The position numbers and the translations under genes are program-made. From contig CM061142.1 in NCBI GenBank assembly GCA_030789695.1, positions 276,017,043-276,081,042 on the forward strand: DNA of 64,000 nucleotides. The letters run 5' to 3'. This DNA is from Scilla litardierei (Eukaryota; Streptophyta; Magnoliopsida; Asparagales; Asparagaceae). Shown one piece after another: positions 1,451-24,730 of the stretch; position 1 is the first letter of the stretch; the number at the start of each line of letters is the position of its first letter. The notes beneath the pieces are model-generated. The model saw nothing but the letters and a program-made list of their open reading frames with translations, made no database searches and was not told the DNA's origin.

Positions 1451-2037
1451 TGTAACGACCACTTTTCGTCGTACGTTGTTCGTGCACGTGCTTTTGGCCG
1501 TGCACGTGTTTGTTTTAGACTTTAATTGTTTGTGAACACTTTCGTGTGATATGCCATTGTGAACGTCTCTGAGAGTATTAAATAGTGGCACTATCTTGGA
1601 ACGACATTTCTCGAGTCGTTTTCCCACAATTTAATCTTACTCGATGAGACGTGACGATTTTCACTTTTGACGGGAGACGTTTCTATTTTTAGTTTCGTCG
1701 TCCGACGTCGAAATTGAGATCCGTTTTCTTAGTTAGCTCAACTTCATCATCACGATCACCCCGATATTTATTTTATAATTTTTGGAGTTTATTTGACCAC
1801 GTTTATATTTTTAACAAGGTTTATAATATTTTTAATAATTTATTTTTAAATTAATTTCGGCCAAATAAAATTTATTTGAGTTTTAAACGTTTTAAAGAAT
1901 TTTTGAGCCAATTTCCAGCTCATTTGGACCAGGTCAAATCCTTGGGTGAGTTGGAGAAGTTGAATTTCAAATTTTAAATTATTTTTAACTTCTAATCCTA
2001 TTAGATTTAGCCCTAGACCAAGTCCACCCATCTATAC

Positions 2038-2044
2038 TATATAA
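2038..2044 (+). promoter_or_regulatory. TATA box of L1 5' LTR (copy in 3' LTR at 13636-13642)
   Basis: TATATAAG stands in an AT-rich U3 about 590 bp into the LTR and is followed by pyrimidine-rich leader sequence. The same site occurs in both LTRs. The start of transcription is expected near 2070, which would leave a leader of more than 2 kb inside the LTR. Confidence 0.6.
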
Positions 2045-2104
2045 GAAACCCCTAGGAAGACCTATTTTCGCAAGAAATTAGCCCTAGCCTCTTCCAAAAC
2101 CCAA

Positions 2105-2720
2105 ATTGGACGTTGCGACGATTCGTCGCAACGTTGCGACGTTCAGCCACCGCACCGACCGAGAAAACCAACCAAAATCTCCCGCTCCGACCGCTAGCCG
2201 CTCCGCACCCAACCCCGCTCCGCATCGCAGCGCATCGCCCCGCTCCGTTCCCTCGGTCTGACCGAGGGCTTGGCCGCACCCCGCTCGCATCCCCGCTCCG
2301 CACAGCGCTCCGCATCGACCCCGCCCCGTTCACTTGCCTCCGCTCGCGCCTGACCGATCGGGCCGCCCGCACCGACCGACGATTGCAATGCTGCAACGCT
2401 GCAACGTTACAACGTCGCAGCCCTCGCATCCAAGCGCACGACCGACCCGATCCCCCGCTCTGACCGAAGGAAGCCGCCGCACCCGCCTAGCGCCCGCACC
2501 CCGCAGCTGCACAGCCCCGTTCCCCCGCAGCGACCGAGAGAATCTCCCGCATTGGCTGGGTACGACCGAGAGCCATTCGTCGCAACCCCGCATCCGTCGC
2601 ACCACTTGCCTCCGTGGGCCCCCCAAGTTCTCCAGAGGTATTGTGGGTCCCACAAAGGTCCCTAGGACTACTGTGGGCCCCACCTAGGTGCGTTCTCTTC
2701 GACGACTTGCCGCGTACGAC
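2105..2720 (+). other. GC-rich leader segment of L1 (copy at 13703-14320)
   Basis: About 600 bp of CpG-rich sequence begins some 60 bp after the TATA box, in strong contrast to its AT-rich surroundings. It opens with palindromic words built from GTTGCGAC and GTCGCAAC. It gives long open frames on both strands in several phases, but their arginine- and proline-rich composition follows from base content. I see no supported protein. Confidence 0.6.
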
Positions 2721-3100
2721 GTTGCGACACATCATCGCCCGTCGTCGCACGTGCTAGCTTTGGAATCTGGAATCGTCGCCCGGTTGATTGCTCTGAAATT
2801 TTCAGCGAGGAATCTAATTGGAATCTGGACTTGGAGCGCGATATATTATTCCAACCCCCGGCGTCGCTACCCGACGCCGGTGTAGCTTTCGCGTCGTGTT
2901 GAGGTAACGCTTTGCACCCCTAGGACCCCCAACCCAATTGCATGTTAACCAAGACTAAAAATCAGTATTTTAAAGTATTTTAAATGTTTTAGCAATCACT
3001 AATCAAGATTAATAAAACGGATGTAGGCCGGTGGACTTGTGCACGTAGGAATTGTGCCTTTGGACTCGTTGGACGGTGTTTCCCTGACGTGATAATTGCA

Positions 3101-3491
3101 GGCAAGTGAAACTTGCCAAATCTTGTTTAGGGCCATGTTTTTAGGCCACTTCCTTGTTTTTAGCGTAAAAGAGACTAGTCAGTGAAATGATAGCTGGCTA
3201 GACGCCTACTTGATCTAGTTTGACAACGAAACTAGATCCGTCACCTAATTGATCTAGCTTGACAACGAAGCTAGATCCAACCCTTAAACTTGTTGTTCAT
3301 GCATACTAAACTGTCACGTTTACTTTCCTTACTTGTACGCCTTACTACTTGTCTTGTCATGTCATCCATGCATTGAATGTCGCATTCGTAGCACACGCTA
3401 CAATACTTGTACTTGTACTCCCTTGTCTGGCTAGGTGCACCCCTAGACCAACAAGATAAAACACTTCCTGGCTCGTGTTCCAGAAGCGAGC
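3101..3491 (+). ncRNA. Candidate structured leader RNA of L1 (copy starting at 14692)
   Basis: Consecutive hairpins are visible. A: GGCAAGT 3101-3107 with ACTTGCC 3111-3117. B: CTAGTCAG 3175-3182 with CTGGCTAG 3194-3201, loop TGAAATGATAG. C1: GATCTAGTTT 3212-3221 with AAACTAGATC 3229-3238, loop GACAACG. C2: GATCTAGCTT 3251-3260 with AAGCTAGATC 3268-3277, same loop. Later: GTAGC/GCTAC (3388-3401), CTAGG/CCTAG (3431-3446), GCTCG/CGAGC (3471-3491). C1 and C2 differ by a T-A to C-G exchange in the stem. S and L2 LTRs hold the same loops on different stems. The role is unknown; packaging, dimerisation or translation control are possible. Confidence 0.7.
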
Positions 3492-3940
3492 ATTCCCGTT
3501 CGGGGGTAAGGCCCTGGCTCAACACACGTGGAGGGGTAGGGATAAACGATCACTTGAGCTTAGGAGTTGGCCCGCGCAGCCACTCTAGCCAAAAGGCGGA
3601 ATCTCTGTGCACGAGGTGCTTACTTTCCTTGTCTTGTACTTGTCTTGTTGTAACGACTGGTTTTCATGTATCTGGATTTATTATAATATAATATATGTTT
3701 TGGTGGATTTTCTCCTCATGTGTGGTTTTCGTCTCCGTAGCTTTCATTTTCGATCGATTCGTCGTAGTTTCTCGTTTCTTCCTTAGGATTGTCGATTTCG
3801 AAGTATGTCATTCATGACGGACTTCATAACGGTCGTATCTTACTGTTAGATCAAGCCTAGGAGTCTTAGGAATCGATCCCGAAGCTCCGCGCTCCGTATC
3901 GGAACTTTTGGTGCACGTTAGCCAGTATAAGAAGGGGCAC

Positions 3941-4333
3941 CGACCGACTAGATGACGATCCAGTCGGTCGGCAATCCTTCTTGGACCGACTAGTTGGCTT
4001 TCTAAATTATTCAGGAGTTACTGTTTATCGTTAGTCGGTCTAAGAACGTTGGTTGACCGACTAGGTTGCAAACTAGTCGGTCAGCAATGCTTCTTTAACC
4101 GACTAACTCTTCAACTTATTTTTGGTATCAATACTGTTCACTTTTAGTCGGTCTAAGAACGTTCATCGACCGACTAGATGTTAAACTAGTCGGTCAGTAT
4201 TTGTTCATGGACCGACTAAATCTAAATCCTATTTTCGTTCAGAAGTTAATGTTTACACTTAGTCGGTCTGCGTTGGTCGACCGACCGACTAGTTGCCAAA
4301 CTAGTCGGTCAGTGGTTGCTCTTTGACCGACTA
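3941..4333 (+). repeat. S1 promoter-proximal palindrome array (CTAGTCGGTC / GACCGACTAG)
   Basis: Alternating copies of AGTCGGTC and its reverse complement GACCGACT recur with a period of about 113-115 bp (TTAGTCGGTC at 4031, 4144 and 4259). The array ends about 44 bp before the TATA box. S2 has the same array at 7796-8190. Nearly the same unit occurs upstream of the TATA box in C1, a copia element. Confidence 0.9.
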
Positions 4334-4376
4334 ATCTGTGTTAAAACCCTAATTTCTGGGCAGCCGCCAGCCCAAC

Positions 4377-4387
4377 CTATTTATACC
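4377..4387 (+). promoter_or_regulatory. TATA box of S1 (S2 copy at 8234-8241)
   Basis: CTATTTATACC directly follows the palindrome array and precedes a C-rich, AAACCCTAA-containing leader. Position and context agree in S1 and S2. Confidence 0.6.
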
Positions 4388-4653
4388 CTCCCAAACGTTT
4401 TCTTCTTCCTCCACTCGACCTAAAACCCTAAAATCTCCCCCATTGAGCCCCCTTCCACCTCCAACCCTTATTCCTTCATCCCAAGCCCTAGATCCATCAT
4501 CTAAACCCTCCATCAACTCATTCTACCTCTCATCTTCCCCAAAATCTCCCCAAATACCCAAAATCCCCCAAAACCCCTAACTCTCCAAACTTCTCCATTT
4601 GTTTCCAGATCTGGTCCTAGGGTTCTCCGGAGTGTTTCTTCCGCCTCCTCTCG

Positions 4654-4750
4654 GTAAGAAATCGATCTCTCGATGTTTTCATAACCTATTTGTATTTTTA
4701 TAAACCCTAATGAAATTTCATGTTGTTTGATGATTGTTTCCCCATAACAG
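4654..4750 (+). other. Candidate leader intron in S1 (S2 copy 8511-8608)
   Basis: The donor CTCTCG then GTAAGAAAT, a T-rich body and the acceptor CCATAACAG then CGATTTC lie between TATA box and hairpins. The signals are kept in both copies, although S1 and S2 differ elsewhere. Introns in 5' leaders are common in plant genes. Splicing is inferred from signals only. Confidence 0.4.
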
Positions 4751-4812
4751 CGATTTCCCCCGTAGATTAGCATCCGCGAGGCGAACCTTTGTGATCATCA
4801 TCCCCGGTGCTA

Positions 4813-5100
4813 GGCAAGTGAAACTTGCCACTTAGGGTTGGGCCATGTTTTAGGCCATCTTGCTTGTTGTAGGCGTAAAAGAGGCTAGGCGACGAAATGA
4901 TACTCGCCTAGGCGCAATTTGGGGAACTAGCTTGATAACGAAGCTAGTTCCGACATATATCATGTTGCACAATTACCATGTCATGTTTACTTTCCATTAA
5001 CGGTACACGAATTAATTGTCATGTCATTGCATTCCTTAAGTGTTTCTGTGATTGCGTAGCTTCGCTACAATGCTTGTGTTCCTGGCTCGTGTTCCAGAAG
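4813..5100 (+). ncRNA. Candidate structured leader RNA of S1 (S2 copy from 8671)
   Basis: The hairpin series parallels L1. A: GGCAAGT/ACTTGCC at 4813-4829. B: CTAGGCGA 4885-4892 with TCGCCTAG 4904-4911 around a loop containing GAAATGATA. C: GGAACTAGCTT 4923-4933 with AAGCTAGTTCC 4941-4951, loop GATAACG. Then GTAGC/GCTAC (5056-5068). Stem B differs from L1 at several paired positions yet stays fully paired. In S2 the inner part of hairpin C is damaged (8783-8810), so that copy may no longer be under selection. Confidence 0.7.
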
Positions 5101-5666
5101 CGGGCCATGTGTTGGTTGATAGCCAATGCCCGAATTGCTTGTTTCCGGCTAGGTGCACCCCTACGCCAATTGTTTATGAATCGTGATATAGAATGCGAGC
5201 TCCTGTGCGGGGCAACCCCGGCTCACTTGCTGAGCTCATGTGCGGGGACCCTGGCTCGATTACGTGTGGGTATTGGGGGTAAGAGTTAAGCGGCCAATCA
5301 ACTGGGAGTCTGCCCAATCAGCAACTGCAGTGGTAAGGCGTAAACTCTGGGTTTGGGGTAGTTGTTAAGCGGCCAATCAGCGTGAATGTGAAACCATTCA
5401 GCTGTAAGGCGTAAACATCTACAAACAACAGTGAAACGTGAATAGTGAATTGATTGAGATTGTTAGTAGCTTGGCTACTCTTGTCTTGTCCCGATGATTG
5501 TTCTCTTGTACAAATTGTCTCGCCATGTCTTGATTGTGCACTCATGTTATAACTGCCATGTCATGCATACTATAACTGCTAGGTTGCTAGTTGCCTTACT
5601 TTCAGTTTCCTTGCCCAAGTCTTTTAGACTTGCTGACATGTGCCCCTTTACTCTTTTGGGTGACAC

Positions 5667-5774
5667 ATGTTAGATCCTGAGCCTGAGTACCTTGTTGAGG
5701 ACGAGGTGTTTGCTGACGCCGAGCCCGAGCTTGTGTTTGACGGGGAGTACGTGGACACTGGGGACCAGTCCTAG
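5667..5774 (+). CDS. Conserved acidic mini-ORF in the S1 leader (35 aa)
   Basis: ATG 5667 opens a 35-codon frame beginning MLDPEPEYLVEDEV and ending EYVDTGDQS before TAG 5772-5774, strongly acidic. The L1 LTRs have a matching ORF with the same start MLDPEPE and ending FVDTGDQ; the L2 LTRs have a longer acidic relative. The AUG lies in the right arm (CACATGT 5664-5670) of a hairpin whose left arm is ACATGTG 5636-5642. In S2 a 1-base deletion shifts the frame. It may be an upstream ORF that sets translation of gag, or a real small peptide. No known family was recognised. Confidence 0.55.
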   Translation: MLDPEPEYLVEDEVFADAEPELVFDGEYVDTGDQS

Positions 5775-6339
5775 TGTCTTCGTTGTGTTTTCCTTTTGTT
5801 TAGACTGCTTTTTTGTTGTCGGTGCGTGGCACCTATACTTTGTTATGTCGTTGCTTTTGTTGGCCTTGTTCTGAGCCTTTAGACTCTTTCTTTTAGCCTG
5901 GTGGCTTTTCTGGATGTTGGACTTATTTTCATGTTGGACAATTTATGAGATATGAGATTTTATTTCAGTCTCTCCTTGTGTTATTATTGTTATTCAGTTG
6001 TGGTTACAGGGACCTGCTTATGTTTTATTGACGCTTATCGGGTTTGGGGCTTCACAGCTCCACTCTCGTGCGGACCTTTTCACGTCTCGCCTCCATTTTA
6101 GGGAAGCGGGGCGTGACACTTGTGAATGATTCATGTAATACTTGTCATCCATGCCATGTTTAAATACCATGCGCGTACTTTACTTTACTTTACTTTACCT
6201 GCTGCACTCATACTTTAACTGCCATGTCATTGCATCATGCTAGAACTGCTAGGTTGCTTTACTTCCACCTACTTCCAGTTTCCTTGCACAAGTCTTCCAG
6301 ACTTGCTGACATGTGCCCCTTTGCTCTTTTGGGTGTCAC

Positions 6340-6441
6340 ATGTTAGACCCTGAGCCAGAGACAGTTGTTGAGGACGAGGTGGTTGCTGACACTGAGCCTA
6401 CGTTCGTCGAGGAGTTCGTGGACACCGGAGACCAGTTTTAG
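6340..6441 (+). CDS. Conserved acidic mini-ORF in the L1 5' LTR (33 aa)
   Basis: The frame starts MLDPEPE, is rich in Asp and Glu, and ends VDTGDQF before TAG 6439-6441. The 3' LTR copy (15456-15557) is also open; a visible change there replaces Asp by Glu, a conservative exchange. Like S1, the start codon sits in the right arm of a hairpin (ACATGTG/CACATGT) preceded by a stem CAAGTCT/AGACTTG. It lies about 340 bp before the LTR end, so it would be an upstream ORF relative to any gag after the primer site. Confidence 0.5.
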   Translation: MLDPEPETVVEDEVVADTEPTFVEEFVDTGDQF

Positions 6442-6784
6442 AGACTGTTGGCGTTGCTTTTGCTTTAGGTTGCTGTTAGATGTCGGTGCTTGCACCATTA
6501 CTTGTTTCTGTACTTTGTGCTTTTGTTGGCCACGCTCGGCCTCTTTTAGACTCTTTTCTTTTAGCCTGGTGGCTTTTTTTGCGATGTTGGAATTTATTAT
6601 TATGGATATTCTGATATGTTTCTTTTGTCTCTTTTCGTTATTATTATCTTTGTTTCGTTTCGCGTTGCAAGGACCTGCAGTTTAAATTTGATCGACGCTT
6701 ATCGGACTTGCAGCTTTGTAGCTTCAAGTCTGAGCGGACCTTCTCACGCTTCACCTCCACGTTTTTGGGAAGCGGGGCGTGACA

Positions 6785-6931: not shown

Positions 6932-7489
6932 ATGGCGAGAAGACGACAGACTCGAGTTGGTGGCGAACCTACTCTGAAGACTTGCTATTTCTGTGGTAAG
7001 ACCGGGCACATCAAGGAGAAGTGCAGAAGCTTTCTAGGCCGGTGTTTGAGTTATGGTGCTGCTACTCATTCAGCGAAGGATTGTCGGCATGTAAATCAAT
7101 TGCGGAAAGCATCGGAGGGAATTCCGCAGCAGGAAGCACCAGTAACTGGGCCAAGTCGGAAGGTGTGCCATCATTGTAGCAAGATTGGTCATGAGAAGAA
7201 ACAGTGCAGGAAGAGGCTGGGCCAGTGCCTGATTTGTGGAGATCCTACTCATACTATGAAGGAGTGTCTGAAGTCTAACCAACCTTGGAAGGAACCCATC
7301 GCTGCACAGCCGTTACAGAAGAAAGCACCTGTACCTACCAGTCGTGGACCAGCCCTCGCTCCACAGAGGCAGGCTTTTCAGCAGGCCATGCAGCCAAAGG
7401 AGCAGGCTTATCCGATGACGGCAGTGGAGAGCGAGACTGAGGATGAGGTTATCGCAGGTAACTCTCGACCTAGTTGTTTCTTCCCTTAG
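6932..7489 (+). CDS. L1 zinc-knuckle protein (gag remnant, 185 aa)
   Basis: The protein has a basic start (MARRRQTR) and two pairs of retroviral-type zinc knuckles. Knuckle 1 is CYFCGKTGHIKEKC (residues 18-31). Knuckle 2 at 38-51 has Tyr in place of the second Cys. Knuckle 3 is CHHCSKIGHEKKQC (79-92) and knuckle 4 is CLICGDPTHTMKEC (99-112). A Pro/Gln-rich tail follows. Such CX2CX4HX4C modules bind RNA in gag nucleocapsid. The capsid part of gag and all of pol are absent, so this is a trimmed gag or a stand-alone RNA-binding product. The ORF ends just 15 bp before S2. Confidence 0.75.
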   Translation: MARRRQTRVGGEPTLKTCYFCGKTGHIKEKCRSFLGRCLSYGAATHSAKDCRHVNQLRKASEGIPQQEAPVTGPSRKVCHHCSKIGHEKKQCRKRLGQCLICGDPTHTMKECLKSNQPWKEPIAAQPLQKKAPVPTSRGPALAPQRQAFQQAMQPKEQAYPMTAVESETEDEVIAGNSRPSCFFP

Positions 7490-7504: not shown

Positions 7505-9927
7505 TGTAATGACTGGTTTTCATGTATCTGGATTTATTATAATATAATATATGTTTTGGTGGATTTTCTCCTCATGTGTGGTTTTCGTCTCCGTAGCTTT
7601 CATTTTCGATCGATTCGTCGTATTTTCTCGTTTCTTCCTTAGGATTGTCGATTTCGAAGTATGTCATTCGTGACGGACTTCATAACGGTCGTATCTTACT
7701 GTTAGATTAAGCCTAGGAGTCTTAGGAATCGATCCCGGAGCTCCGAGCTCCGTATCGGAACTTTTGGTGCACGTTAGCCGGTATAAGAAGGGGCACCGAC
7801 CGACTAGATGACGATCCAGTCGGTCGGCAATCCTTCTTGGACCGACTAGTTGGCTTTCTAAATTATTTAGAAGTTACTGTTTATCGTTAGTCGGTCTAAG
7901 AACGTTGGTTGACCGACTAGGTTGCAAACTAGTCGGTCAGCAATGCTTCTTTAACCGACTAACTCTTCAACTAAATTTTAGTATCAATACTGTTCACTCT
8001 TAGTCGGTCTAAGTTCATCTCTCGACCGACTAGATGTAAAACTAGTCGGTCAGTAGTTGTTCATTGATCGACTAAATCTAAAACCTATTTTCGTTCAGAA
8101 GTTACTGTTTACACTTAGTCGGTCTGTGTTGGTCGACCGACCGACTAGTTGCCAAACTAGTCGGTCGGTGGTTGCTCTTTGACCGACTAATCTGTGTTAA
8201 AACCCTAATTTCTGGGCAGCCGCCAGCCCATCCTATTTATACCCCTCCCAAACGTTTTCTTCTTCCTCCACTCGACCCAAAACCCTAGTTTCTCCCCCAT
8301 TGAGCCCTCATCTTCCTCCAAGCCTTATTCCTTCATCCCAAGCCCTAGATCCATCATCTAAATCCTCCATCCACTCATTCTACCTCTCATTTTCCCCAAA
8401 ATCTCACCAAATCCCCAAAATCCCCCAAAAACCCTAATTCTCCAAACTTCTCCATTTGTTTCCAGATCTGGTCCCTAGGTTCTCTGGAGTGTTTCTTCCA
8501 CCTCCTCTCGGTAAGAAATTGATCTCTTGATGTTTTCATAACCTATTTGTATTTTTATGAAACCCTAATGAAATTTCATGTTGTTTGATGATTGTTTCCC
8601 CATAACAGCGATTTCCCCCGTAGATTAGCATCCGCGAGACGAACCTTCGTGATCGTCATCCCCGGTGCTAGGCAAGTGAAACTTGCCACTTAGGGTTAGG
8701 GCCATGTTTTAGGCCATCTTGCTTGTTGTAGGCGTAAAAGAGGCTAGGCGACGAAATGATACTCGCCTAGGCGCAAATTGGGGAACTAGCTGGACAACGA
8801 AACTAGTTCCGACATATATCATGTTGCACAATTACCATGTCATGTTTAAATTCCATTAACGATACGCGAATTAATTGTCATGTCATTGCATTCTTTAAGT
8901 GATCCCGTGATTGCGTAGCATCGCTACAATACTTGTGTTCCTGGCTCGTGACCAGAAGCGAGCATAATGAGTTGCTAACCCCAACGCTCGATATTGAATT
9001 GTGAACTAAGAAAAAATCTCCCGTGCGGGGCAACCCTGGCTCACTTGCTGGGCTCATGTACAGGGACCCTGGCTTGTTTACGTGTGGGATGGCGTAAGGG
9101 TTAAGCGGCCATTCAACTGGGAGTCTGCCCGATCAGCAACTGCAGTTGTAAGGTGTAAACTCTGGGGTGGGGTAGTGTTTAGTGCCGATCGGCGTGAATG
9201 TTGTACCATTCAGCTGAAGGGCGTAAACATCTACAAACAACGTGAAACGTGAATAGTGAATTGATTGAGATTGTTAGTAGCTTGGCTACTCTTGTCTTGT
9301 CCCGTTAATTGTTCTCTTGTACTTATTGTTCACCATGTCTTGCTTGTGCACTCATGTTATAACTGCCATGTCATGCATACTATAACTGCTAGGTTGTTAG
9401 TTGCCTTACTTTCAGTTTCCTTGCCCAAGTCTTTTAGACTTGCTGACATGTGCCCCTTTACTCTTTTGGGTGACACATGTTAGATCCTGAGCCTGAGTCC
9501 TTGTTGAGGACGAGGTGTTTGCTGACGCCGAGCCCGAGCTTGTGTTTGACGGGGAGTACGTGGACACTGGGGACCAGTCCTAGTGTCTTCGTTGTGTTTT
9601 CCTTTTGTTTAGACCGCTGTTTTGTTGTCGGTGCGTGGCACCTATACTTTGTTATGTCGTTGCTTTTGTTGGCCTTGTTCTGGGCCTTTAGACTCCTTCT
9701 TTTAGCCTGGTGGCTTTTCGGGATGTTGGACTTATTTTCATGTTGGACAATTTATGAGATATGAGATTTTATTTCAGTCTCTCCTTGTGTTATTATTGTT
9801 ATTCCGTTGTGGTTACAGGGACCTGCTTATGTTTTATTGACGCTTATCGGGTTTGGGGCTTCACAGCTCCACTCTCGTGCGGACCTTTTCACGTCTCGCC
9901 TCCATTTTAGGGAAGCGGGGCGTGACA
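7505..9927 (+). mobile_element. S2: second solo LTR of the S family
   Basis: It is 2423 bp from TGTAATGACTGG to GGGGCGTGACA, with flanking CTTGT at 7500-7504 and 9928-9932. It is collinear with S1 across palindrome array (7796-8190), TATA, candidate intron and hairpins, with scattered small differences. It sits in the internal region of L1 right after the zinc-knuckle ORF. Its mini-ORF (ATG 9477) is shifted by a 1-base deletion relative to S1. Confidence 0.92.
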
Positions 9928-13048: not shown

Positions 13049-15900
13049 TGTAACGACCACTTTTCGTCGTACGTTGTTCGTGCACGTGCTTTTGGCCGTG
13101 CACGTGTTTGTTTTAGACTTTAATTGTTTGTGAACACTTTCGTGTGATATGCCGTTGTGAACGTCTCTGAGAGTATTAAATAGTGGCACTATCTTGGAAC
13201 GACATTTCTCGAGTCGTTTTCCCACAATTTAATCTTACTCGATGAGACGTGACGATTTTCACTTTTGACGGGAGACGTTTCTATTTTTAGTTTCGTCGTC
13301 CGACGTCGAAATTGAGATCCGTCTTCTTAGTTAGCTCAAATTCGTCATCACGATCACCCCGATATTTATTTTATAATTTTTGGAGTTTATTTGACCACTT
13401 TTATATTTTTAACAAGGTTTATAATATTTTTAATAATTTATTTTTAAATTAATTTCGGCCAAATAAAATTTATTTGAGTTTTAAACGTTTTAAAGAATTT
13501 TTGAGCCAATTTCCAGGTCATTTGGACCAGGTCAAATCCTTGGGTGAGTTGGAGAAGTTGAATTTCAAATTTTAAATTATTTTAAACTTCTAATCCTATT
13601 AGATTTAGCCCTAGACCAAGTCCACCCATCTATACTATATAAGCAACCCCTAGGAAGACCTATTTTCGCAAGAAATTAGCCCTAGCCTCTTCCAAAACCC
13701 AAATTGGACGTTGCGACGATTCGTCGCAACGTTGCGACGTTCAGCCACCGCACCGACCGAGAAAACCAACCAAAATCTCCCGCTCCGATCGCTAGCCACT
13801 CCGCACCCAACCCCGCTCCGCATCGCAGCGCATCGCCCCGCTCCGTTCCCTCGGTCTGACCGAGGGCTTGGCCGAACCCCGCTCGCATCCCCGCTCCGCA
13901 CAGCGCTCCACATCGACCCCGCCCCGTTCACTTGCCTCCGCTCACGCCTGACCGATCGGGCCGCCCGCACCGACCGACGATTGCAACGCTGCAACGTTGC
14001 AACGTCGCAGCCCTCGCATCCAAGCGCACGACCGACCCGATCCCCCGCTCTGACCGAAGGAAGCCCCCGCACCCGCCTAGCGCCCGCACCCCGCAGCTGC
14101 ACAACCTAGTTCCCCCGCAGCGACCGAGAGAATCTCCCGCATTGGCTGGGTACGACCGAGAGCCATTCGTCGCAACCCCGCATCCGTCGCACCACTTGCC
14201 TCCGTGGGCCCCCCAAGTTCTCCAGAGGTATTGTGGATCCCCCAAAGGTCCCTAGGACTACTGTGGGCCCCACCTAGGTGCGTTCTCTTCGACGACTTGC
14301 CGCGTACGACGTTGCGACACGTCGTCGCCCGTCGTCGCACATGCTAGCTTTGGAATCTGGAATCGTCGCCCGGTTGATTGCTCTGAAATTTTCAGCGAGG
14401 AATCTAATTTGAATCTGGACTTGGAGCGCGATATTATTATTCCAACCCCCGGCGTCGCTACCCGACGCCGGTGTAGCTTTCGCGTCGTGTTAAGGTAACG
14501 CTTTGCACCCCTAGAACCCCCAACCCAATTGCATGTTAACCAAGACTAAAAATCAGTATTTTAAAGTATTTTAAATGTTTTAGCAATCACTAATCAAGAT
14601 TAATAAAACGGATGTAGGCCGGTGGACTTGTGCACGTAGGAATTGTGCCTTTGGACTCGTTGGACGGTGTTTCCCTGACGTGATAATTGCAGGCAAGTGA
14701 AACTTGCCAAATCTTGTTTAGGGCCATGTTTTTAGGCCACTTCCTTGTTTTTAGCGTAAAAGAGACTAGTCAGTGAAATGATAGCTGGCTAGACGCCTAC
14801 TTGATCTAGTTTGACAACGAAACTAGATCCGTCACCTAATTGATCTAGCTTGACAACGAAGCTAGATCCAACCCTTAAACTTGTTGTTCATGCATACTAA
14901 ACTGTCACGTTTACTTTCCTTACTTGTACGCCTTACTACTTGTCTTGTCATGTCATCCATGCATTGAATGTCGCATTCGTAGCACACGCTACAATACTTG
15001 TACTTGTACTCCCTTGTCTGGCTAGGTGCACCCCTAGACCAACAAGATAAAACACTTCCTGGCTCGTGTTCCAGAAGCGAGCATTCCCGTTCGGGGGTAA
15101 GGCCCTGGCTCGACACACGTGGAGGGGTAGGGATAAACGATCACTTGAGCTTAGGAGTTGGCCCGCGCAGCCACTCTAGCCAAAAGGCGGAATCTCTGTG
15201 CACGAGGTGCTTACTTTCCTTGTCTTGTACTTGTCTTGTGAATGATTCATGTAATACTTGTCATCCATGCCATGTTTAAATACCATGCTCGTACTTTACT
15301 TTACTTTACTTTACCTGCTGCACTCATACTTTAACTGCCATGTCATTGCATCATGCTAGAACTGCTAGGTTGATTTACTTCCACCAACTTCCAGTTTCCT
15401 TGCACAAGTCTTCCAGACTTGCTGACATGTGCCTCTTTGCTCTTTTGGGTGTCACATGTTAGACCCTGAGCCAGAGACAGTTGTTGAGGACGAGGTGGTT
15501 GCTGAAACTGAGCCTACGTTCGTCGAGGAGTTCGTGGACACCGGAGACCAGTTTTAGAGACTGTTGGCGTTGCTTTTGCTTTAGGTTGCTGTTAGATGTC
15601 GGTGCTTGCACCATTACTTGTTTCTGTACTTTGTGCTTTTGTTGGCCACGCTCGGCCTCTTTTAGACTCTTTTCTTTTAGCCTGGTGGCTTTTTTTGCGA
15701 TGTTGGAATTTATTATTATGGATATTCTGAGATGTTTCTTTTGTCTCTTTTCGTTATTATTATCTTTGTTTCGTTTCGCGTTGCAAGGACCTGCAGTTTA
15801 AATTTGATCGACGCTTATCGGACTTGCAGCTTTGTAGCTTCAAGTCTGAGCGAACCTTCTCACGCTTTGCCTCCACGTTTTTGGGAAGCGGGGCGTGACA
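13049..15900 (+). repeat. L1 3' LTR
   Basis: This is an uninterrupted 2852-bp copy of the L1 LTR from TGTAACGACC to CGTGACA. It keeps TATA box (13636), GC-rich leader, hairpins (14692-14868 and on), mini-ORF (15456-15557) and conserved terminus. It is the reference for the pre-insertion site of S1. Divergence from the 5' LTR is low by eye. Confidence 0.93.
15456..15557 (+). CDS. Acidic mini-ORF in the L1 3' LTR (33 aa)
   Basis: This copy of the ORF at 6340-6441 has the same length. One change turns an Asp codon into Glu; the frame, start and stop are kept. See the S1 and L2 counterparts. Confidence 0.5.
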   Translation: MLDPEPETVVEDEVVAETEPTFVEEFVDTGDQF

Positions 15901-15973: not shown

Positions 15974-16223
15974 GTAATTATTGCTTCGGCTGTCACGTCC
16001 CGCTTCCCAAAAATACGGAGGCGAAGCGTGACTAAGGCCCGCTTAGGCCGGAGCTGTGAAGCTCGGACCCAATAAGCGTCTGTAGGGGTACCATTTTAAA
16101 AAATTTCAGGTTCTTGCATTTATAAAGTTCGAAACAACAGGAAGTACAGAAGAAAAGTTGCATTCATTAATATAATTAATATCCAACGAGTACAAAGTCT
16201 AAGAGAGGAAAGCCTAAGCATGG

Positions 16224-16391
16224 CTACAAACTATCGAAAAAGCAACTAAAGTAGTAACCTCTGAAAGTGGCGATCGAAAAGTCCTCAAAGTCTGAATCCT
16301 CATCAGGCACGTACTCTGGATCGACGTCCTCGGGCTCCACGTACTCCGATAAGTCTGTCGTGTCCTCGAACTCTGGCTTGACACCTGACAT
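16224..16391 (-). CDS. Acidic mini-ORF in the L2 3' LTR (55 aa)
   Basis: The frame starts MSGVKPEFEDTTDLSEYVEP, is rich in Asp, Glu and Tyr, and ends in an aromatic tail before the stop 16224-16226. The L2 5' LTR copy (29791-29958) is open too, with a few amino-acid changes. The AUG is in the arm of a 13-bp hairpin (16383-16395 with 16414-16426). It is the positional and compositional counterpart of the S and L1 mini-ORFs, though sequence identity is modest. Confidence 0.5.
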   Translation of the reverse strand: MSGVKPEFEDTTDLSEYVEPEDVDPEYVPDEDSDFEDFSIATFRGYYFSCFFDSL

Positions 16392-16800
16392 ACAGTACCC
16401 AAGAGAAAAGAAACTGTACGTCAGGTAAAGTCTACAAGAAGGGTTAGACTCTACTGCAAGTGCACCAACTATTAAACAATGGTTTACTGGTTGATTAGCA
16501 TGCTGGGGTTATAACAGATGTTTTACTGGTTGTTTAGCATGCTGAGGTTATAACAGGATGACAACAGAAAGTAAACGCAGCAGGGAAGTAAAACACGACA
16601 AGTAGTAGTCGTAGCGTGTGCTACCAACTACGGGACTAACCTACAGGTGTCAAGACAAGTCGGGACGTGACGGGACAAGACAAGACAAGTGAGACACGAA
16701 AGGGTTCACGCCTTACGGTTAGAGGGGGATCAGACCCTCTTGCCGTGCGCACGCTCAACCCAACCCCAAACCCCAAGGATGACAAGACAAGACAATCACG

Positions 16801-17040
16801 ACAAGGGATCACTCTCTCTAGCTTGGCGAGTGCCCTATTGCCCTCTGGGATGTGTATCAGTACAAGGGATCACTCACTCTAGCTTGGTGAGTGCCCTATT
16901 GCCCGCAGGCTGTGAATCAGTACAAGGGATCACTCTCTCTAGCTTGGAGAGTGCCATATTGCCCGCAGGCTGTGAATCAGTACAAGGGATCACTCTCTCT
17001 AGCTTGGAGAGTGCCCTATTGCCCGCAGGCTGTACAAGAT
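16801..17040 (-). repeat. Four 60-bp tandem repeats in the L2 LTR (copy 30373-30612)
   Basis: Units start at 16801, 16862, 16922 and 16982, each with ACAAGGGATCACTC and a hairpin around TCTAGCTTG. Stem arms are CACTCTC/GAGAGTG in two units and CACTCAC/GTGAGTG in another, a paired change. The first unit (arm ending GCGAGTG) pairs less well. They lie in the leader between the mini-ORF and the shared hairpins. Confidence 0.85.
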
Positions 17041-17136
17041 GAGACGGGACGTGACAAGACGGGAAGGGTTATTCTAGGGTGTCCACACACATGCACACAC
17101 ATGATAGCCCTACGATGTCAAAAGTTGTTGTTGTCA

Positions 17137-17279
17137 GGCTCAGACTTCGTCGTCAAGTCCGAGCCGTCAGGGGTCGTCCCGGACGCTATCATTTCACGTC
17201 CGGTTCTCTTGTTCACAGTTAACAGTTCTAACAAACTAAGGCCTAAACACGGCCAAAAGTGCAAGTGGATACACTTGCC
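17137..17279 (-). ncRNA. Candidate structured leader RNA of L2 (5' LTR copy 30709-30851)
   Basis: On the minus strand the order is the same as in L1. Hairpin A: GGCAAGTG with CACTTGC (17261-17279). Hairpin B: CCGGACG with CGTCCGG (17179-17185, 17197-17203), loop TGAAATGATAG, identical to the L1 loop. Hairpin C: GGCTCGGACTT with AAGTCTGAGCC (17137-17165), loop GACGACG. Stems B and C share almost no sequence with those of L1 and S, yet pair fully, with one G-U in the sense RNA. Confidence 0.7.
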
Positions 17280-18436
17280 TGCGATGGCGAGTGTGTCGTC
17301 CTCTCGAAGCGTCTCGTCCAAGCATCTCGTCCGCGGTAGTCCGTCTGAAACAAGGGGGTCACGGCGACGTTGTCAGGTCGTGATTTTCAATAAACCTATT
17401 TAGGTTCATTTCTAGGTTAAGCGTGGCTACCCTAACAGTCACATATCAAAATGTCCATTTAGCCTATTCGACGATTCTATCCTATGTGCACAGTTAAAAC
17501 AGTCCGATCGTCGATCTACGGTTCCACATCATTTTAAAGAAGCAGAAAGTAAATTTAATGATTAAGTTGCCAATTTTAATTAGGTTTTCTATACTACGAT
17601 GTGGGTTGTAAGATGACGATGGGGGACTAACCGTTGATGTAACGAATGTGGGTAGCGACGACGTGTACGTTCCCAAACAGCGACACGTGCCTCGGTGTTT
17701 ATTGTCACAACCTTAAGAATTCCGGCGTGGTCGGACGGAAGGCGTGACCATCTCTGCGTCATAAGATTTAATTATTAGGTTAAACGAATTTACTTGATTA
17801 AGGTCATAACCACACATCTTACGTTACATGCAAGTTATTAAACTTAACTTGTATATTATACATGTATATACTAATATGTTAACTACATATGTAAATATTT
17901 ACTAACAGTTCATGAACTACAAGTTATCAGCCCCACTGTACCAATATTATTGAAACTTGATATAGCAACTAGGTTATCGTTAATGGCTCATACCAACTTC
18001 TCATATAAACAGCTACCACTAAACTTATATGCATTAACATATAGGGCTGTTAGAACTATTACACTTATAAAGTAAATATCAACTCATGCTTAACAGTGTG
18101 TACAAACATATAATGAGTACAACCTACTGAATTAGTAATCATCTGACATCAAAAAAATGGGTTAACAACTAACAGCAGCTTAACTTTTATTATAAAACTT
18201 AATATTATATTGAAGCTAATACACTGATGTAGTAAACCTAACATCCTCGTCATTATAAATACCCCATTTCCAATAATAAACTCACAAAGGTCCATAACAT
18301 AACAATTATAAAACTAACACTATAAAAATGACACCAATGAACCGATATAAACCATTATCATTTAATAACCAACTACTACTCTGCCATTAACATTTGCCAT
18401 TCTAACTTAATAAGGCATGCCTGGAAAAAGGCTTAC

Positions 18437-19170
18437 GTGTGGGAGCTTAAGTGCTTGCAGCAGAAACGGCGGGTGGAGCGCTGCTGGGTTGCGCGCGGTG
18501 GAGGAGGAGGCTTAGGAGGAGAAGATCGGAGCGGCGCGGTGGCGACGAGATCAGCGGGGCGTGGGGCGGCTGCTCGAGGAAGGAGGCGACGGCATGGCGA
18601 TGGGGAGAGAATCGCGAGCTCGACGGCAGGTCAGAGAGCTGGAAATCGACAGGGATGCGCGTGACTGGGGCTGCCAGATGACGGTTAACAGGCAGAGGGT
18701 AAGCGCGGCCGGGCGATGAACGGATCGGGGAGATCGAAGGACGGCGAGGATGAAGGCGTAGGCCGCTCGGCGGCGGGGTGAGGCGAGGTTGGCGCGGTCT
18801 GGGAAACCGAAACAGTGTGCAATGGAGGTAGAACGTCGAAACGATCTCGCTGGAGCGTTGGACGTTGTGATGGCCGGCCTGGGAGAGTTGTCGAAGGGCG
18901 GTGTCGCCGGCCTGAGGGTGATCGGAGCAGTGGGGGTTTTGGCTGAGTGGAGGTGTGACGGCGGAGGCTTGGGCATTTGATAGATGGCGCGGCTGAAGGG
19001 CGACTCGCACGGCCTGTGCGAGAGGGAGGGAGTCGATGGCGGATGGGTTTCGACGAAAATGCCGGAGGTGCTCGCGGAGGGGATGAAGGTGGCGGCCTGG
19101 GTTTCGGTTTTGAAAAGAAAAGCCTAGGGCTTGCTCTCATACTGGCTTTTGTAGGGGAGAGTATCACGTG
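18437..19170 (-). other. GC-rich segment of the L2 LTR (copy 32009-32742)
   Basis: About 730 bp of GC-rich DNA inside an otherwise AT-rich LTR. It gives overlapping open frames on both strands with Pro/Ser/Arg-rich or Gly/Arg-rich composition, which is explained by base content. No domain was recognised. Its position in the LTR resembles the GC-rich leader of L1, though the sequences differ. Confidence 0.55.
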
Positions 19171-19714
19171 GGGTGAGGGAGCGTGGAGGAGATCATGGTC
19201 TGTTAGGATTAATAACAGGTTAGTTTTTAAAAAAATTAGATTTTATAAACAGGCTTGATTTGATTGCTGTTAGGATATTATAATTTGTGGATTAGATTCG
19301 GGGAGTGGGGTGATTTCGTGAGATAGGGGAAAAGATATGGGTACGGTTGTAGGTCAAGATATTTAGGGGATTTATTTAAAGATTTGATATGAGAAAATTT
19401 ACTTTCAGTTTGAATTTGAATTGAAAAACTTATGGTTAAAATAATATTTAAAAAAATGTCCAATCCACTCTCTACCTTTGCTGATCCTAATCGTCCATAT
19501 CATCCTACTATCTCGTGCTTAATCTAACTTAGACATGTAGTGCCCTGTGGTAGCTACTGCACACGTACTAGAGGGGGGTGAATAGTACTTAAAATAATCA
19601 AGATAGTTATTCCTAATTATTGTGCAAGAAACAAACGACAATGCGGAATTAAACAACTATCAACAAGAATTAAAACATACGCAAACAAACAATATTACTG
19701 GGTTCGGATCCACC

Positions 19715-19911
19715 CAAGTCTCCCCGACTTGTTCCCGGTGATCCTACGTCCCAACCACCCGGATCCCCTCCGGATACTTGAGTTAGCAACCCTAACTCAA
19801 GATTTCCACTATGAAGTACTTGTGAACAACCTTCACAAGTCAAATCATACACAAAGTAATTTGTGACTCCCACAACCCGGGATCACAACCACACTCTCAC
19901 AACCGAGAGTG
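19715..19911 (-). ncRNA. C1 leader hairpin array with constant loops (copy 24912-25108)
   Basis: Six hairpins with unrelated stems use two loops. In the sense RNA, loop GGGGA closes CAAGUC/GACUUG (19715-19731) and CCGGA/UCCGG (19759-19773). Loop GGUUG closes a 10-bp stem CUUGAGUUAG/CUAACUCAAG (19777-19801), a 9-bp stem ACUUGUGAA/UUCACAAGU (19818-19840), a short stem UCCCG/UGGGA with one G-U pair (about 19868-19882) and a 7-bp stem CACUCUC/GAGAGUG (19892-19911, loop GGUUGU). In the 5' LTR this array lies just upstream of the primer site. Confidence 0.75.
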
Positions 19912-20272
19912 AAACTTACAATTCAAATATGAAATGAAATAAACTCTTACCTTACAAAATCCTATGCCTTGAGTATACTTACCAAATTAGGGCAATGATG
20001 GATTTTGAGGAAGAGGATGTCACCAAACCCTAGCTTCAAGAAGATGACCAGCAAAGGAAGCCTAGGGTGGAGTATGGTGACTAGGATCAAGCTCTTGGCT
20101 TGAGAAGCTCACAATGGAGAGAATCTCTCTTGAGGAATTAGGGCTCAAGGTGTTGAGGGAGAGATTCTTGTGAGGGAGAGAGAGCTTTGAATTAGCTTGG
20201 GAGAGCTCTTCTCTTAGGTCTGAAATTGCTTGGAAATAGGACCTCTAACCCCTCTTCAAACGAATCAGGATT

Positions 20273-20281
20273 CTATTTAAA
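20273..20281 (-). promoter_or_regulatory. TATA-like box of C1 (5' LTR copy about 25468-25476)
   Basis: On the minus strand CCTTTAAATAGAATC lies about 55 bp downstream of the palindrome array and just upstream of a CT-rich leader, the usual arrangement in LTR promoters. Confidence 0.55.
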
Positions 20282-20335
20282 GGGGCAAGAGAAATCGAGT
20301 TTGAAAGAATCCCAACGGCTCTATTCTGAAGCAGA

Positions 20336-20864
20336 CTAGTCGGTCAAAGAAGGATCACTGACCGACTAGTTCATCAACTAGTCGGTCGGTGAAACAACGT
20401 AGACCAACTAACGGTAGAACAGCCAAGAAGTCGAAGTACATGCAAAGACAACTAGTCGGTCTAAGAAGACTTGCCGACCGACTAGTTTCACAACTAGTCG
20501 GTCGGTGAATGATCTTTGACCGACTGACGTTGAAATAGAATAGGTAGACTTCAAGTTGACTTAGTCGGTTTAAGAAAAAATGCTGACCGACTAGTTTCTC
20601 AACTAGTCGGTCGGTAAATGTTCTTTGACCGACTAACTCGAAACAGTAGCTCAGGCTGAAAATGACTGTACACAACTAGTCGGTCTGAGAAGGACTCCTG
20701 ACCGACTAGATTGTCATCTAGTCGGTCGGTGACTCTTCTTTGACCGACTAACTGTAGTCATGGAAAGAGCTGAATATAGAGAAGGCAAACTAGTCGGTTC
20801 ATGTAGAGTTACCGACCGACTAGATCGTCATCTAGTCGGTTGGTGACTCTTCTTGAACCAACTA
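20336..20864 (-). repeat. C1 promoter-proximal palindrome array (copy 25531-26060)
   Basis: Five units with CTAGTCGG-type starts at 20336, 20452, 20561, 20677 and 20790 (period 109-116 bp), each holding direct and inverted copies of AGTCGGTC. Read toward its own TATA box, a 32-base stretch (20452-20483) matches S1 3962-3993 at 29 positions. Confidence 0.9.
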
Positions 20865-21267
20865 ACATGCACTCGAAGCCGAGGGAAGAAGCGATAGGCT
20901 TCGGGAAAGTTTCTAATGGCTTCTATGATAATCCTAGCTCTAAGATATGAGCGAAATGAAGATTATAAAGTAAGTCCTACTCAAGGCTTAACATTCTAAT
21001 CTATGAAGCTAGAAGACTATAAAAATCAACCTTACGAGCCGTCTTCAAAGCTTCAATCTTCATTCCTCTTGACTTCAATATTGCTCCTTGAGCTTCAACG
21101 AAGCTCCAGGCACACGATCACGCGTATTGAGAAGTCTTGAGACGTCGCTTTTGTTGTACGTGGTATTTTGGCGACGATCTCCATAACTGCGCTCACAAAT
21201 AAGTTAGTATCCATTATTTATGTTTGCTCATCATCCAAAACCAAATCCGGGGAACCATATCACAACA

Positions 21268-22485
21268 TTCTCCCCCTTTTTGGTGATGACAAACCAATCA
21301 TAAATAATAAGCAATAATAATGATTCAATTGAAATTTACTTACTCCCCCTGCATTGATGACACGTTAGTTCCATATTCAATAATATTCATATGCATCAAG
21401 CAGCGAGGGAAGATATGAAATATGAACCACATATTGACATATAGGATCTAAATCCATTTTATATCTTTACTCCCCCTGAATCTAACACATCAAATTAGAT
21501 TCATGGTAAATTCATTTGAATTATTAATTAGCACATTGTCATTATTATATCTCTCCCCCTTTGGCATTAGCAAAAAGAGCGGGAGGAGACAAAAGCAATG
21601 GCTAAAAAATAACGCATGGGAGTCGAAGAATACGACCAAGGTCCAAAATACCACCAATTCAAAATATCAAATGTAAAATACCGAATAAAAGCAAAGCGTG
21701 TCAAGGAGACCAAAGTCGAAAATCGGAAACCGAAATCATCAAACCATAGGCGAAATACGAAAACCGAAATCATAAAATCATCGGCGAAAATCGGAAAACG
21801 AAATCACCAAGCCATAAGCGAAAATCGAAATACGAAATCATCAAGCCATAGGCGAAAAACGAAATCCGAAATCATCAAAACTCAAATCAATTTTACTTAT
21901 TGAGTTTTGGAACATACTCTCCAAAATCAATAGAATGCATGGAAAACAATTCTATGTTTCCATAGAAAGAATTCTATTAAATCCATAAAATCGTCGAATG
22001 ACGAAATCAACATCAGAGACAAAAATAATCCGATGTGCATACCAAATGTAGCATGCAAGAATGTTATGCCAAAAATAGATAGAACATCATATACCAATGG
22101 CATACACTAATCTAGCATACCAAATGAAGCAAAATGATACCAATCGTAATATATTCTACCAATGGATACCAATATGAATCAAAAGTATGAACATACTTAC
22201 AACATTAAGCTCCCCCTACTTTGGTGCATCATTCAAGCACCATCAACTCCAATCGAATGAAAATCCTTGCAAATCACGGAGTTGGTAGGGTTGGTATCTC
22301 ATGGTGGATTTAACCTAGAGAATATCATTTTGGTATCCAAAAATCCTTTTGGATCCTATGGGTTAGGCAATAAATTTATCTAACTAAATTCAAATTAAAT
22401 GTAACACATACATACCACAATTGCTTTGGTACCCATAAAAATGAAATTAAACTTATGGTACCAAGCAATGAAGGGTCAAAGGAAA
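21268..22485 (-). other. C1 3' non-coding region with several polypurine-like tracts
   Basis: No ORF. On the minus strand AGGGGGAG-type tracts occur next to the LTR (21268-21282) and again near 21341, 21470, 21551 and 22210. A 34-bp tandem repeat lies at 21732-21890. Several polypurine tracts ahead of the 3' LTR are a reported Sirevirus feature. Confidence 0.7.
21732..21890 (-). repeat. 34-bp tandem repeat in C1
   Basis: Units beginning GAAATCATC or close variants start at 21732, 21766, 21800, 21834 and 21868. They give an accidental open frame on the plus strand. Confidence 0.85.
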
Positions 22486-24690: not shown

Positions 24691-24717
24691 AGCTTGAACT
24701 TGTAGCTTTAACCTTGG

Positions 24718-24729
24718 CTCTGATACCAG
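24718..24729 (-). other. C1 primer binding site (initiator Met tRNA type)
   Basis: On the minus strand TGGTATCAGAGC lies one base after the 5' LTR end. It is the complement of the plant initiator-Met tRNA 3' end, the common primer of copia elements. Confidence 0.9.
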
Positions 24730-24730
24730 T

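What the first reader, a model, noticed from the sequence alone, without database searches (positions are those of the whole stretch)
3101..3277. Structured leader RNA with constant loops and compensatory stems shared by three LTR families
Hairpin B has loop TGAAATGATAG in L1 (3183-3193) and in L2 (minus strand, within 17179-17203) and CGAAATGATAC in S1 (4893-4903). Its stems are CTAGTCAG/CTGGCTAG, CCGGACG/CGTCCGG and CTAGGCGA/TCGCCTAG. Hairpin C has loop GACAACG, GACGACG or GATAACG on stems GATCTAGTTT, GATCTAGCTT, GGCTCGGACTT and GGAACTAGCTT, each with its pairing partner. Loops are kept while stems change on both sides, which is the signature of selection on RNA structure. All copies lie in the LTR downstream of the TATA box, so in the transcript leader. 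I know of no named plant retrotransposon RNA element like this.
Basis: partly seen in the sequence, partly recalled or inferred. Interest (0 to 1): 0.92.

Follow-up and report, generated by a model that had tools for sequence, protein, structure and literature searches.

The report
Shared RNA hairpins of plant retrotransposons
A large clan of apparently plant jumping genes, both elements that carry copying genes and relatives without them, keeps one short stretch predicted to fold into RNA hairpins, with constant loops and stems that change in step, and it likely marks their RNA for packaging and copying.

Summary
Three related LTR families in the window (L1, S1, L2) share a 139-177-nt island in their LTRs with hairpins B (loop GAAATGATA) and C (loop GAYRACG). 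Loops stay; stems change on both sides. In 4 distinct window copies 12 of 19 pairs carry double changes. A model built without L2 finds L2 at 50.3 bits; the same model without base pairs gives 8.6. The window's 3.68-Gb genome holds 3,873 plus 564 exact matches to two loop patterns, 0 for the reversed patterns. In 88 distinct rows 89.8% of cells pair; compensatory branch events number 14 against 0.77 expected, though only 3 of 19 single pairs pass. One S1-type element encodes Ty3/gypsy gag-pol domains; L1 and L2 interiors lack an RT motif. What L2 was found to share with S1 is LTR ends, putative primer site, purine tract and this island. I infer a cis-acting replication signal, most likely for Gag packaging or dimerization. 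Function and transcription are untested; a translation role is a rival. No Rfam family and no paper I found matches it.

The parts
3101..3277 (+). structured island, L1 5' LTR copy
3101..3117 (+). hairpin A1 GGCAAGTGAAACTTGCC (constant stem)
3131..3147 (+). hairpin A2 GGCC...GGCC (constant stem, loop length varies)
3167..3173 (+). AAAAGAG before hairpin B (AAGAG constant in all three families)
3175..3201 (+). hairpin B, stem CTAGTCAG/CTGGCTAG, loop TGAAATGATAG
3212..3238 (+). hairpin C1, stem GATCTAGTTT/AAACTAGATC, loop GACAACG
3251..3277 (+). hairpin C2 (second copy of C, in L1), stem GATCTAGCTT/AAGCTAGATC
14692..14868 (+). island, L1 3' LTR copy, identical to the 5' copy
4813..4951 (+). island, S1a solo LTR; B stem CTAGGCGA/TCGCCTAG at 4885-4911, C at 4923-4951
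8671..8810 (+). island, S1b solo LTR; hairpin C damaged (two mismatches)
17137..17279 (-). island, L2 3' LTR copy; B stem CCGGACG/CGTCCGG, C stem GGCTCGGACTT/AAGTCTGAGCC
30709..30851 (-). island, L2 5' LTR copy, identical to 17137-17279
1451..6784 (+). L1 5' LTR (TGTAAC...GTGACA), interrupted by S1a at 3649-6118
13049..15900 (+). L1 3' LTR, 2852 bp
3649..6118 (+). S1a solo LTR, flanked by CTTGT
7505..9927 (+). S1b solo LTR inside the L1 interior, flanked by CTTGT
29558..33634 (-). L2 5' LTR, 4077 bp
15991..26996 (-). L2 3' LTR, split by a copia-type element at about 19536-26462
6932..7489 (+). 185-aa zinc-knuckle ORF of L1, two copies of the nucleocapsid part of an S1-type gag
26997..29557 (-). 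L2 interior, 2561 bp: no RT motif, no zinc knuckle, no ORF of 70 aa or more on its sense strand

Best explanation
The island is a conserved element of an apparently plant Ty3/gypsy (chromovirus-type) retrotransposon clan, predicted to fold as RNA into hairpins with constant loops, that most likely acts in cis as the signal by which the clan's Gag proteins select and pair genomic RNAs for packaging, so that relatives without copying genes could ride on those that have them. Shown: the island with its constant loops and co-varying stems, its presence in LTRs of families with coding members (S1 type) and families without an RT motif (L1, L2), and thousands of pattern matches in one genome. Inferred: that the host is a plant, that the island is transcribed as part of the leader, that Gag or its nucleocapsid binds the loops, and that it serves packaging or dimerization rather than translation, export or stability. 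Proposed working: the stems hold the GAAAUGAUA and GAYRACG loops and the AAGAG strand in a fixed arrangement; Gag zinc knuckles read the unpaired bases; an RNA lacking gag and pol but keeping this island, the primer site, the purine tract and the LTR ends is copied in trans.
For: Structure: searches (94.7% of cells paired against 74.5% shuffled; 12 of 19 pairs with double changes; slid controls 0 or 1; 88 distinct rows: 89.8% against 68.8%; 424 double-change cells against 174; 14 compensatory branch events against 0.77), hold-out (50.3 against 8.6 bits). Sharing: between LTRs of L1 and S1 the island aligns at 77%, flanked by stretches with almost no match at E 0.01. L2's interior shares with an S1-type interior only 26 nt after the 5' LTR (putative primer site) and 36 nt at the purine tract, and by sequence search its LTR shares only the last ~90 nt with S1 plus the first bases. 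S1-type interior L227 has gag, protease, RT, RNase H and integrase domains and a sub-threshold chromo match. A CCGG-type locus, L229, has gag and RT. L1 has no RT motif and keeps two copies of the nucleocapsid part of gag; L2 has no RT motif, zinc knuckle or sense ORF of 70 aa. Constraint: in 30 L1 copies picked by neighbouring DNA (two are the window's own), loops B and C1 show no change, and hairpins B+C have 0.9% mismatches, the lowest bins outside the query. Precedent by analogy: packaging signals retained in gag-less BARE2 (PMC3735527, passages); minimal Ty1/Ty3 elements mobilised in trans need only terminal cis sequences (PMC4974528, passages).
Against: No binding, packaging or expression data. 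Transcription start and poly(A) site are unknown, so the leader position is unproven. An LTR signal would also occur near the RNA's 3' end if it lies in R. The tree-null test passes for only 3 of 19 pairs (1 of 19 on the narrower set; 0 of 19 on L2-like copies alone), and only 8 of the 25 top-scoring pairs belong to the structure. In A5 the count of pairs with double changes (17) is reached by 17 of 500 shuffles. In most L1/S1-type copies the loop AUG opens a four-codon uORF (39 of 42), which fits a translation role.
Confidence: 0.5

Rival explanations
1. Translation control: a short upstream ORF starting in the loop of hairpin B and ending just before the stable hairpin C makes ribosomes bypass or reinitiate, as in the shunt of plant pararetroviruses.
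For: In 39 of 42 L1/S1-type copies the loop AUG opens a 4-codon ORF (MIxx stop) ending in the 3' stem of B; in L1, S1 and L140 hairpin C starts about 10-12 nt later. In CaMV the short ORF ends six nucleotides before the stem (PMC2241666, passages).
Against: In L2-like copies the same loop AUG opens frames of 4 to 26 codons (34 copies) or runs off the fetched stretch (5 of 39), although the hairpins are kept. L2's interior has no sense ORF of 70 aa to translate. The UAG comes automatically from the CTAG stem.
Confidence: 0.2
2. RNA stability, nuclear export or 3'-end formation element, for example juxtaposing a poly(A) signal and its site, as some structured retroviral R regions do (recalled).
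For: It lies in the LTR and could be present at both RNA ends. RNA-structure elements that raise plant retrotransposon RNA levels exist (ENE in Evade, PMC12501189, passages). It would also be needed by non-coding families.
Against: No U-rich internal loops as in ENE in the folds, no Rfam match, and no AATAAA in the S1 LTR (plant signals vary, so this is weak).
Confidence: 0.2
3. A DNA-level feature (cruciform or paired binding sites of a host protein) rather than RNA.
For: Stems of 7-11 bp are also inverted repeats in DNA; the antisense strand of the S1 island also scores weakly with the models (18.6 and 20.7 bits).
Against: Constant AAGAG and loops with changing stems fit RNA better. G-U pairs occur on the sense strand. 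But one sense mismatch would be G-U on the other strand, so strand evidence is weak.
Confidence: 0.06
4. Shared ancestry without selection on pairing; the apparent covariation is an artefact of few families.
For: On 45 rows only 1 of 19 pairs passes; L2-like copies alone 0 of 19.
Against: 14 against 0.77 compensatory events with slid controls 0 to 1; the hold-out gain of about 42 bits from pairing; several alternative matched stems, e.g. CTAGATCG/CGATCTAG and CTAGACCG/CGGTCTAG.
Confidence: 0.03

Closest known systems
Retroviral packaging/dimerization signals with GACG-tetraloop hairpins (gamma- and alpharetroviruses, Maedi-visna)
   Same: Hairpins with a constant GAC-type loop near the RNA 5' end; one loop variant here reads GACGACG. 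Source: PMC516450, passages.
   Different: Here the loop is 7 nt, GAYRACG, not a GACG tetraloop; the element is inside the LTR; a second constant loop GAAAUGAUA has no counterpart that I know of.
LARDs (large retrotransposon derivatives, e.g. Sukkula)
   Same: L2: ~4-kb LTRs and a 2.6-kb interior without recognisable coding; LARDs are said to encode no protein and to specify well-conserved RNA structures (PMC7215508, passages).
   Different: That RNA structure was placed in the interior domain (recalled); here it is in the LTR and is shared with coding families. L1 keeps a small zinc-knuckle ORF.
BARE1/BARE2 (plant copia) packaging and dimerization signals
   Same: A gag-less family keeps signals of its coding partner and is packaged (PMC3735527, passages).
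   Different: Different superfamily (recalled); no sequence or structural resemblance was tested.
ENE triple-helix element of Evade and other plant elements
   Same: RNA structure with a role in plant LTR retrotransposons (PMC12501189, passages).
   Different: ENE has U-rich internal loops and lies in the 3' UTR; not seen here.
Retrozymes
   Same: Structured RNA motif inside plant LTRs (PMC4918200, search listing only).
   Different: Hammerhead ribozyme; no Rfam match here.

Membership tests
Ty3/gypsy chromovirus (element that carries the island, S1 type) | gag, protease, RT, RNase H, integrase order with chromodomain | tested here: met
   One element, L227: Retrotrans_gag 1.1e-16, RVP_2, RVT_1 3.5e-35, RNase H, H2C2, SH3_Tf2-1; rve 5.8e-4 and chromo 8.5e-4 are below their cut-offs, so the chromodomain is weakly supported. 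The copy's pol frame is interrupted. Clade (e.g. Tekay) not tested by tree.
LARD | long LTRs and a non-coding interior with primer site and purine tract (definition partly recalled) | tested here: met
   L2: LTR 4077 bp, interior 2561 bp, no RT motif, zinc knuckle or sense ORF of 70 aa; primer site and purine tract by position only. L1 only in part (zinc-knuckle ORF).
LARD | conserved RNA structure in the interior | tested here: inconclusive
   Three L1/L2 interior islands (63-68% identity) gave weak consensus folds.
GACG-tetraloop packaging hairpins | GACG tetraloop | tested here: not met
   7-nt loops GACAACG, GATAACG, GACGACG.
Retroelement packaging signal (psi) | binds Gag/nucleocapsid and directs RNA into particles | not testable with these tools
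   needs an experiment
Retrozyme / hammerhead | hammerhead ribozyme in LTR | tested here: not met
   no Rfam family at gathering score in the window; nothing near threshold over 3080-3320
ENE | U-rich internal loop in a stem | tested here: not met
   no such loop in the predicted folds, no Rfam match
Pararetroviral ribosome shunt | short ORF ending a few nt before a stable stem | tested here: inconclusive
   39 of 42 L1/S1-type copies have the 4-codon ORF; frame lengths vary in 39 L2-like copies
any Rfam RNA family | score above gathering threshold | tested here: not met
   0 matches in 64 kb

The most novel reading that the evidence does not exclude
This is the packaging/dimerization signal of a plant chromovirus clan: a modular RNA code (constant read-out loops on freely changing stems) carried in the LTR, which coding-less parasites keep as their ticket to be copied and which therefore lets a whole plant genome be scanned for RNAs mobilisable in trans.
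Probability: 0.4. Interest if true: 0.82.

Novelty: new variant of a known kind. Interest (0 to 1): 0.66.

Why it matters
How plant LTR-retrotransposon RNAs are chosen for packaging is little known (one paper says so for elements other than BARE: PMC3735527, passages), and LARD-type families are assumed to depend on trans-complementation (PMC7215508, passages). A short element that a covariance model recognises, shared by coding and non-coding families and matched thousands of times in one genome, gives a concrete candidate whose loops and stems can be exchanged one by one. It would also help to group LTR families by RNA signal and to pair non-coding families with coding helpers.

Tried and rejected
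IMG/VR scans for relatives: 67 hits for GTAAAAGAG..GAAATGATA, longest stem 6 bp, none with the hairpin A or C words tested; 4 hits for the A1 hairpin, no B loop, 2 with a chance C-loop word; 0 for a combined pattern. Rfam at relaxed threshold: best 21.9 bits to mir-303 on the other strand, against a gathering score of 77: chance. Protein search with the zinc-knuckle ORF: 38 candidates, none at E <= 0.001. Hammerhead, ENE and GACG tetraloop considered and rejected (see membership). A UUGUU to loop-C pseudoknot was considered by eye and not tested. Conserved RNA structure in the L1/L2 interiors: weak. A further C-like hairpin at 48633(-) lacks hairpin B and is taken as chance. Weak model hits in the window besides the copies lie mainly on the antisense strand of the S1 islands and in the 113-bp repeats of S1 and the copia-type element (up to 18.6 bits with R1, 20.7 with R2, E about 0.001); I take them as chance or self-complementarity. 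Own tree-null covariation test on A4: only 1 of 19 pairs. It is my own script (G-test with APC, Fitch-based substitution reshuffling), not R-scape. Diversity within 30 loci picked by the island itself was discarded as ascertainment bias and redone with neighbouring DNA. In A4/A5 the fetched copies' loops were fixed by the search pattern, so those sets say nothing about loop conservation. One of the 80 fetched stretches (L157) fell below the score cut and is not in A4 or A5. The zinc-knuckle ORF as evidence of protein selection: dropped, because dN/dS is 0.54-0.60 over the full ORF but 0.78-1.01 over its first ~335 nt. The pattern search meant to test loop B without fixing it did not complete.

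Full report
What is there. The window is a stretch of an unnamed 3.68-Gb genome, which I take for a plant from its size and element types, and it is made largely of nested LTR retrotransposons. L1 lies on the + strand (5' LTR from 1451, 3' LTR 13049-15900, 2852 bp). S1 is present as two solo LTRs (3649-6118 and 7505-9927, both flanked by CTTGT). L2 lies on the - strand (5' LTR 29558-33634, 4077 bp; 3' LTR 15991-26996, split by a copia-type element). L1 and L2 share LTR ends, the sequence after the 5' LTR (putative primer site) and a purine-rich stretch before the 3' LTR.

The island. Each LTR holds a block that begins after an AG with GGCAAGTG and ends with hairpin C. L1 and S1 align there at 77% (L1 LTR 1643-1783, S1 1163-1303), and again in the last ~580 bp at 75%; the stretches between and before give no match at E 0.01 apart from one 52-column piece. 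The parts are two small hairpins with constant stems (A1, A2), a constant AAGAG strand, hairpin B and hairpin C (twice in L1).

More than chance. GAAATGATA: 9 found, 0.88 expected. Loop C core: 5 found, 0.00 expected. Fold z-scores are -4.4, -3.9 and -4.0. In a scan of 306 windows of 90 nt (40 shuffles each) the island holds the best z in L1 (-7.4) and in L2 (-5.3), and ranks fourth of 80 in S1.

Selection on pairing. With the four distinct window copies, 94.7% of cells pair (shuffled 74.5%), 12 of 19 pairs have a change on both sides (shuffled 4.6), and slid structures give 0 or 1. For hairpin C alone (five copies) the figures are 92.7% and 6 of 11. Hold-out: a covariance model from L1 and S1 only finds both L2 copies at 50.3 bits, E 2.4e-11; the same alignment modelled without pairs gives 8.6 bits, E 0.14 (E-values are rough). 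The next-best hits of the paired models, apart from the second C hairpins, are 18.6 and 20.7 bits, on the antisense strand of S1a. The window contains no further full copies by this test.

Genome-wide. The pattern AAGAG-N-GAAATGATA-N-GACGACGAA has 3,873 exact matches and the GATAACGAA form 564; the reversed-pattern controls have 0. The GACAACGAA form did not complete. The L1 island itself gives 791 first-look candidates, of which the 40 scored are 99-100% identical over the full query. The printed rows (about 100 of each list) show many matched stems for hairpin B: CTAGTCAG/CTGGCTAG, CTAGACAG/CTGTCTAG (L140), CTAGGCAG/CTGCCTAG, CTAGGCGA/TCGCCTAG, CTAGATCG/CGATCTAG, CTAGACCG/CGGTCTAG, CCGGACG/CGTCCGG, CCAGACG/CGTCTGG. 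They also show decayed ones. I fetched 80 stretches chosen by eye for diversity from those rows, which lie on contigs C1-C4. One (L157) did not reach the score cut. The alignment A5 (90 matches, 88 distinct: 79 fetched stretches, 6 window copies, L140, L142, L186, L120 and L134) has 89.8% of 1,653 cells paired against 68.8% shuffled, and 424 double-change cells against 174; slid controls give at most 30. The number of pairs with any double change (17) is less telling: shuffles average 14.8 and 17 of 500 reach it. This alignment is fitted to the model, and the loops of the fetched stretches are fixed by the search pattern.

Relatedness. My own tree-based null (FastTree, parsimony, 300 reshuffled alignments; not R-scape) gives 14 compensatory branch events at the 19 pairs against a mean of 0.77 (maximum 4); slid controls 0, 1, 0, 0. 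Three of 19 pairs pass E<0.05, one in B and two in C; the three top-scoring of all 2,775 pairs belong to the structure, but only 8 of the top 25 do. In the L1/S1-like subset (50 rows) it is 11 against 0.56, with 2 of 19 pairs. In the L2-like subset (38 rows) it is 5 against 0.57 (null maximum 5), with 0 of 19 pairs. On the earlier 45-row set only 1 of 19 passed and no pair passed a test over all pairs. So the structure is well supported as a whole, while few single pairs reach significance. Columns 19 and 29, which flank loop B (U and G, or C and C), also score high and may form a non-standard pair.

Loops. Thirty L1 copies found through neighbouring DNA (3400-3640), two of them the window's own, have no change in loop B or loop C1 and three changes in loop C2. 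Hairpins B and C have 0.9% mismatches and no gaps, the lowest of all 60-nt bins outside the query; adjacent downstream bins have 1.4-2.1%, the A1/A2 bin 3.4%, and more distant ones 1.8-19%. Proximity to the query may account for part of this.

Who carries it. Pairs of islands 7.2-7.3 kb apart on contig C1 mark S1-type elements. The stretch between one pair (L227) has S1 LTR ends (100% over 89 bp and 94% over 84 bp) and encodes gag, protease, RT, RNase H and integrase domains and a sub-threshold chromo match; its pol frame is interrupted, so no claim is made that this copy works. A second (L228) shows similar ORFs in the listing, not profile-searched. A locus between two L2-like islands 7.9 kb apart (L229) also has gag and RT; its LTR ends were not in the fetched stretch. 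The L1 interior of the window has no RT motif. Some L1 copies keep a 185-aa ORF that consists of two copies of the nucleocapsid part of the S1-type gag (62-66% identity). It is open in the window copy and in two other copies, and over the part fetched in a third; dN/dS against the window copy is 0.54-0.60 over the full ORF and 0.78-1.01 over the first ~335 nt, so selection on the protein is not shown. Of the eight other L1 interiors fetched, two showed it. L2's interior has no RT motif, zinc knuckle or sense ORF of 70 aa and shares with L227 only 26 nt at the putative primer site and 36 nt at the purine tract.

Mechanism. What L2 shares with coding S1 (as far as my comparisons reach: LTR ends, primer site, purine tract, island) is the list of parts an RNA needs in cis to be copied by another element's proteins. 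Ends, primer site and purine tract have known jobs; the job left over is recognition of the RNA by Gag. Hence the packaging/dimerization reading, at about 0.5. The main rivals are translation (a loop AUG with a 4-codon uORF in 39 of 42 L1/S1-type copies, but with varying frames in 39 L2-like copies) and RNA fate (stability, export, 3' end). Transcription of the island, protein binding and function are untested.

Known or new. No Rfam family matches. Papers seen: PMC12218528 outline and passages (its main text does not contain 'transpos'); passages of PMC516450, PMC3735527, PMC11381356, PMC12501189, PMC7215508, PMC2241666 and PMC4974528; others by search listing only. The ten paper searches (listings capped) showed no described element of this kind; most subscription papers and preprints were not searched. 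I file it as a new variant of a known kind: a cis-acting structured RNA of LTR retroelements, with a position, loops and stem behaviour not described for plants in what I could search.

Noticed in passing
3906-4350, 7762-8206 (+) and 20332-20866, 25527-26061 (-): S1 (gypsy-type) and the nested copia-type element share tandem ~113-bp units (ACTAGTCGGTC...) at ~75% identity in their LTRs, upstream of the likely S1 TATA box; possible shared enhancer repeats.
   Followed up: no
3649-6118 and 7505-9927: Two S1 solo LTRs inside L1 both sit at the same 5-bp target CTTGT; CTTGT is frequent in this LTR sequence by eye.
   Followed up: partly
6932-7489; L106:115-672; L105 2826-3383 (-): L1 ORF made of two nucleocapsid (zinc-knuckle) copies with the capsid part gone; second knuckle of the window copy has lost a cysteine.
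   Followed up: partly
3187-3201 and other L1/S1-type copies: AUG inside the constant loop B opens a 4-codon uORF ending in the 3' stem, in 39 of 42 copies.
   Followed up: partly
A5 columns 19 and 29: Bases flanking loop B covary as U/G or C/C: a possible non-standard closing pair.
   Followed up: no
16848-17093 and 30420-30665 (-): 60-bp tandem repeats directly downstream of the island in L2.
   Followed up: no
34520-35203 and 41868-42807: 57-58-bp tandem repeat arrays; an ORF of 193 aa runs through the first.
   Followed up: no
50490-51254: 312-nt inverted repeat, 89% complementary, 141-nt spacer.
   Followed up: no
4652-4750: S1 leader has GTAAG...AACAG bounds and T-rich content like a plant intron, upstream of the island; the island itself starts after an AG in all three families (read by eye).
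   Followed up: no
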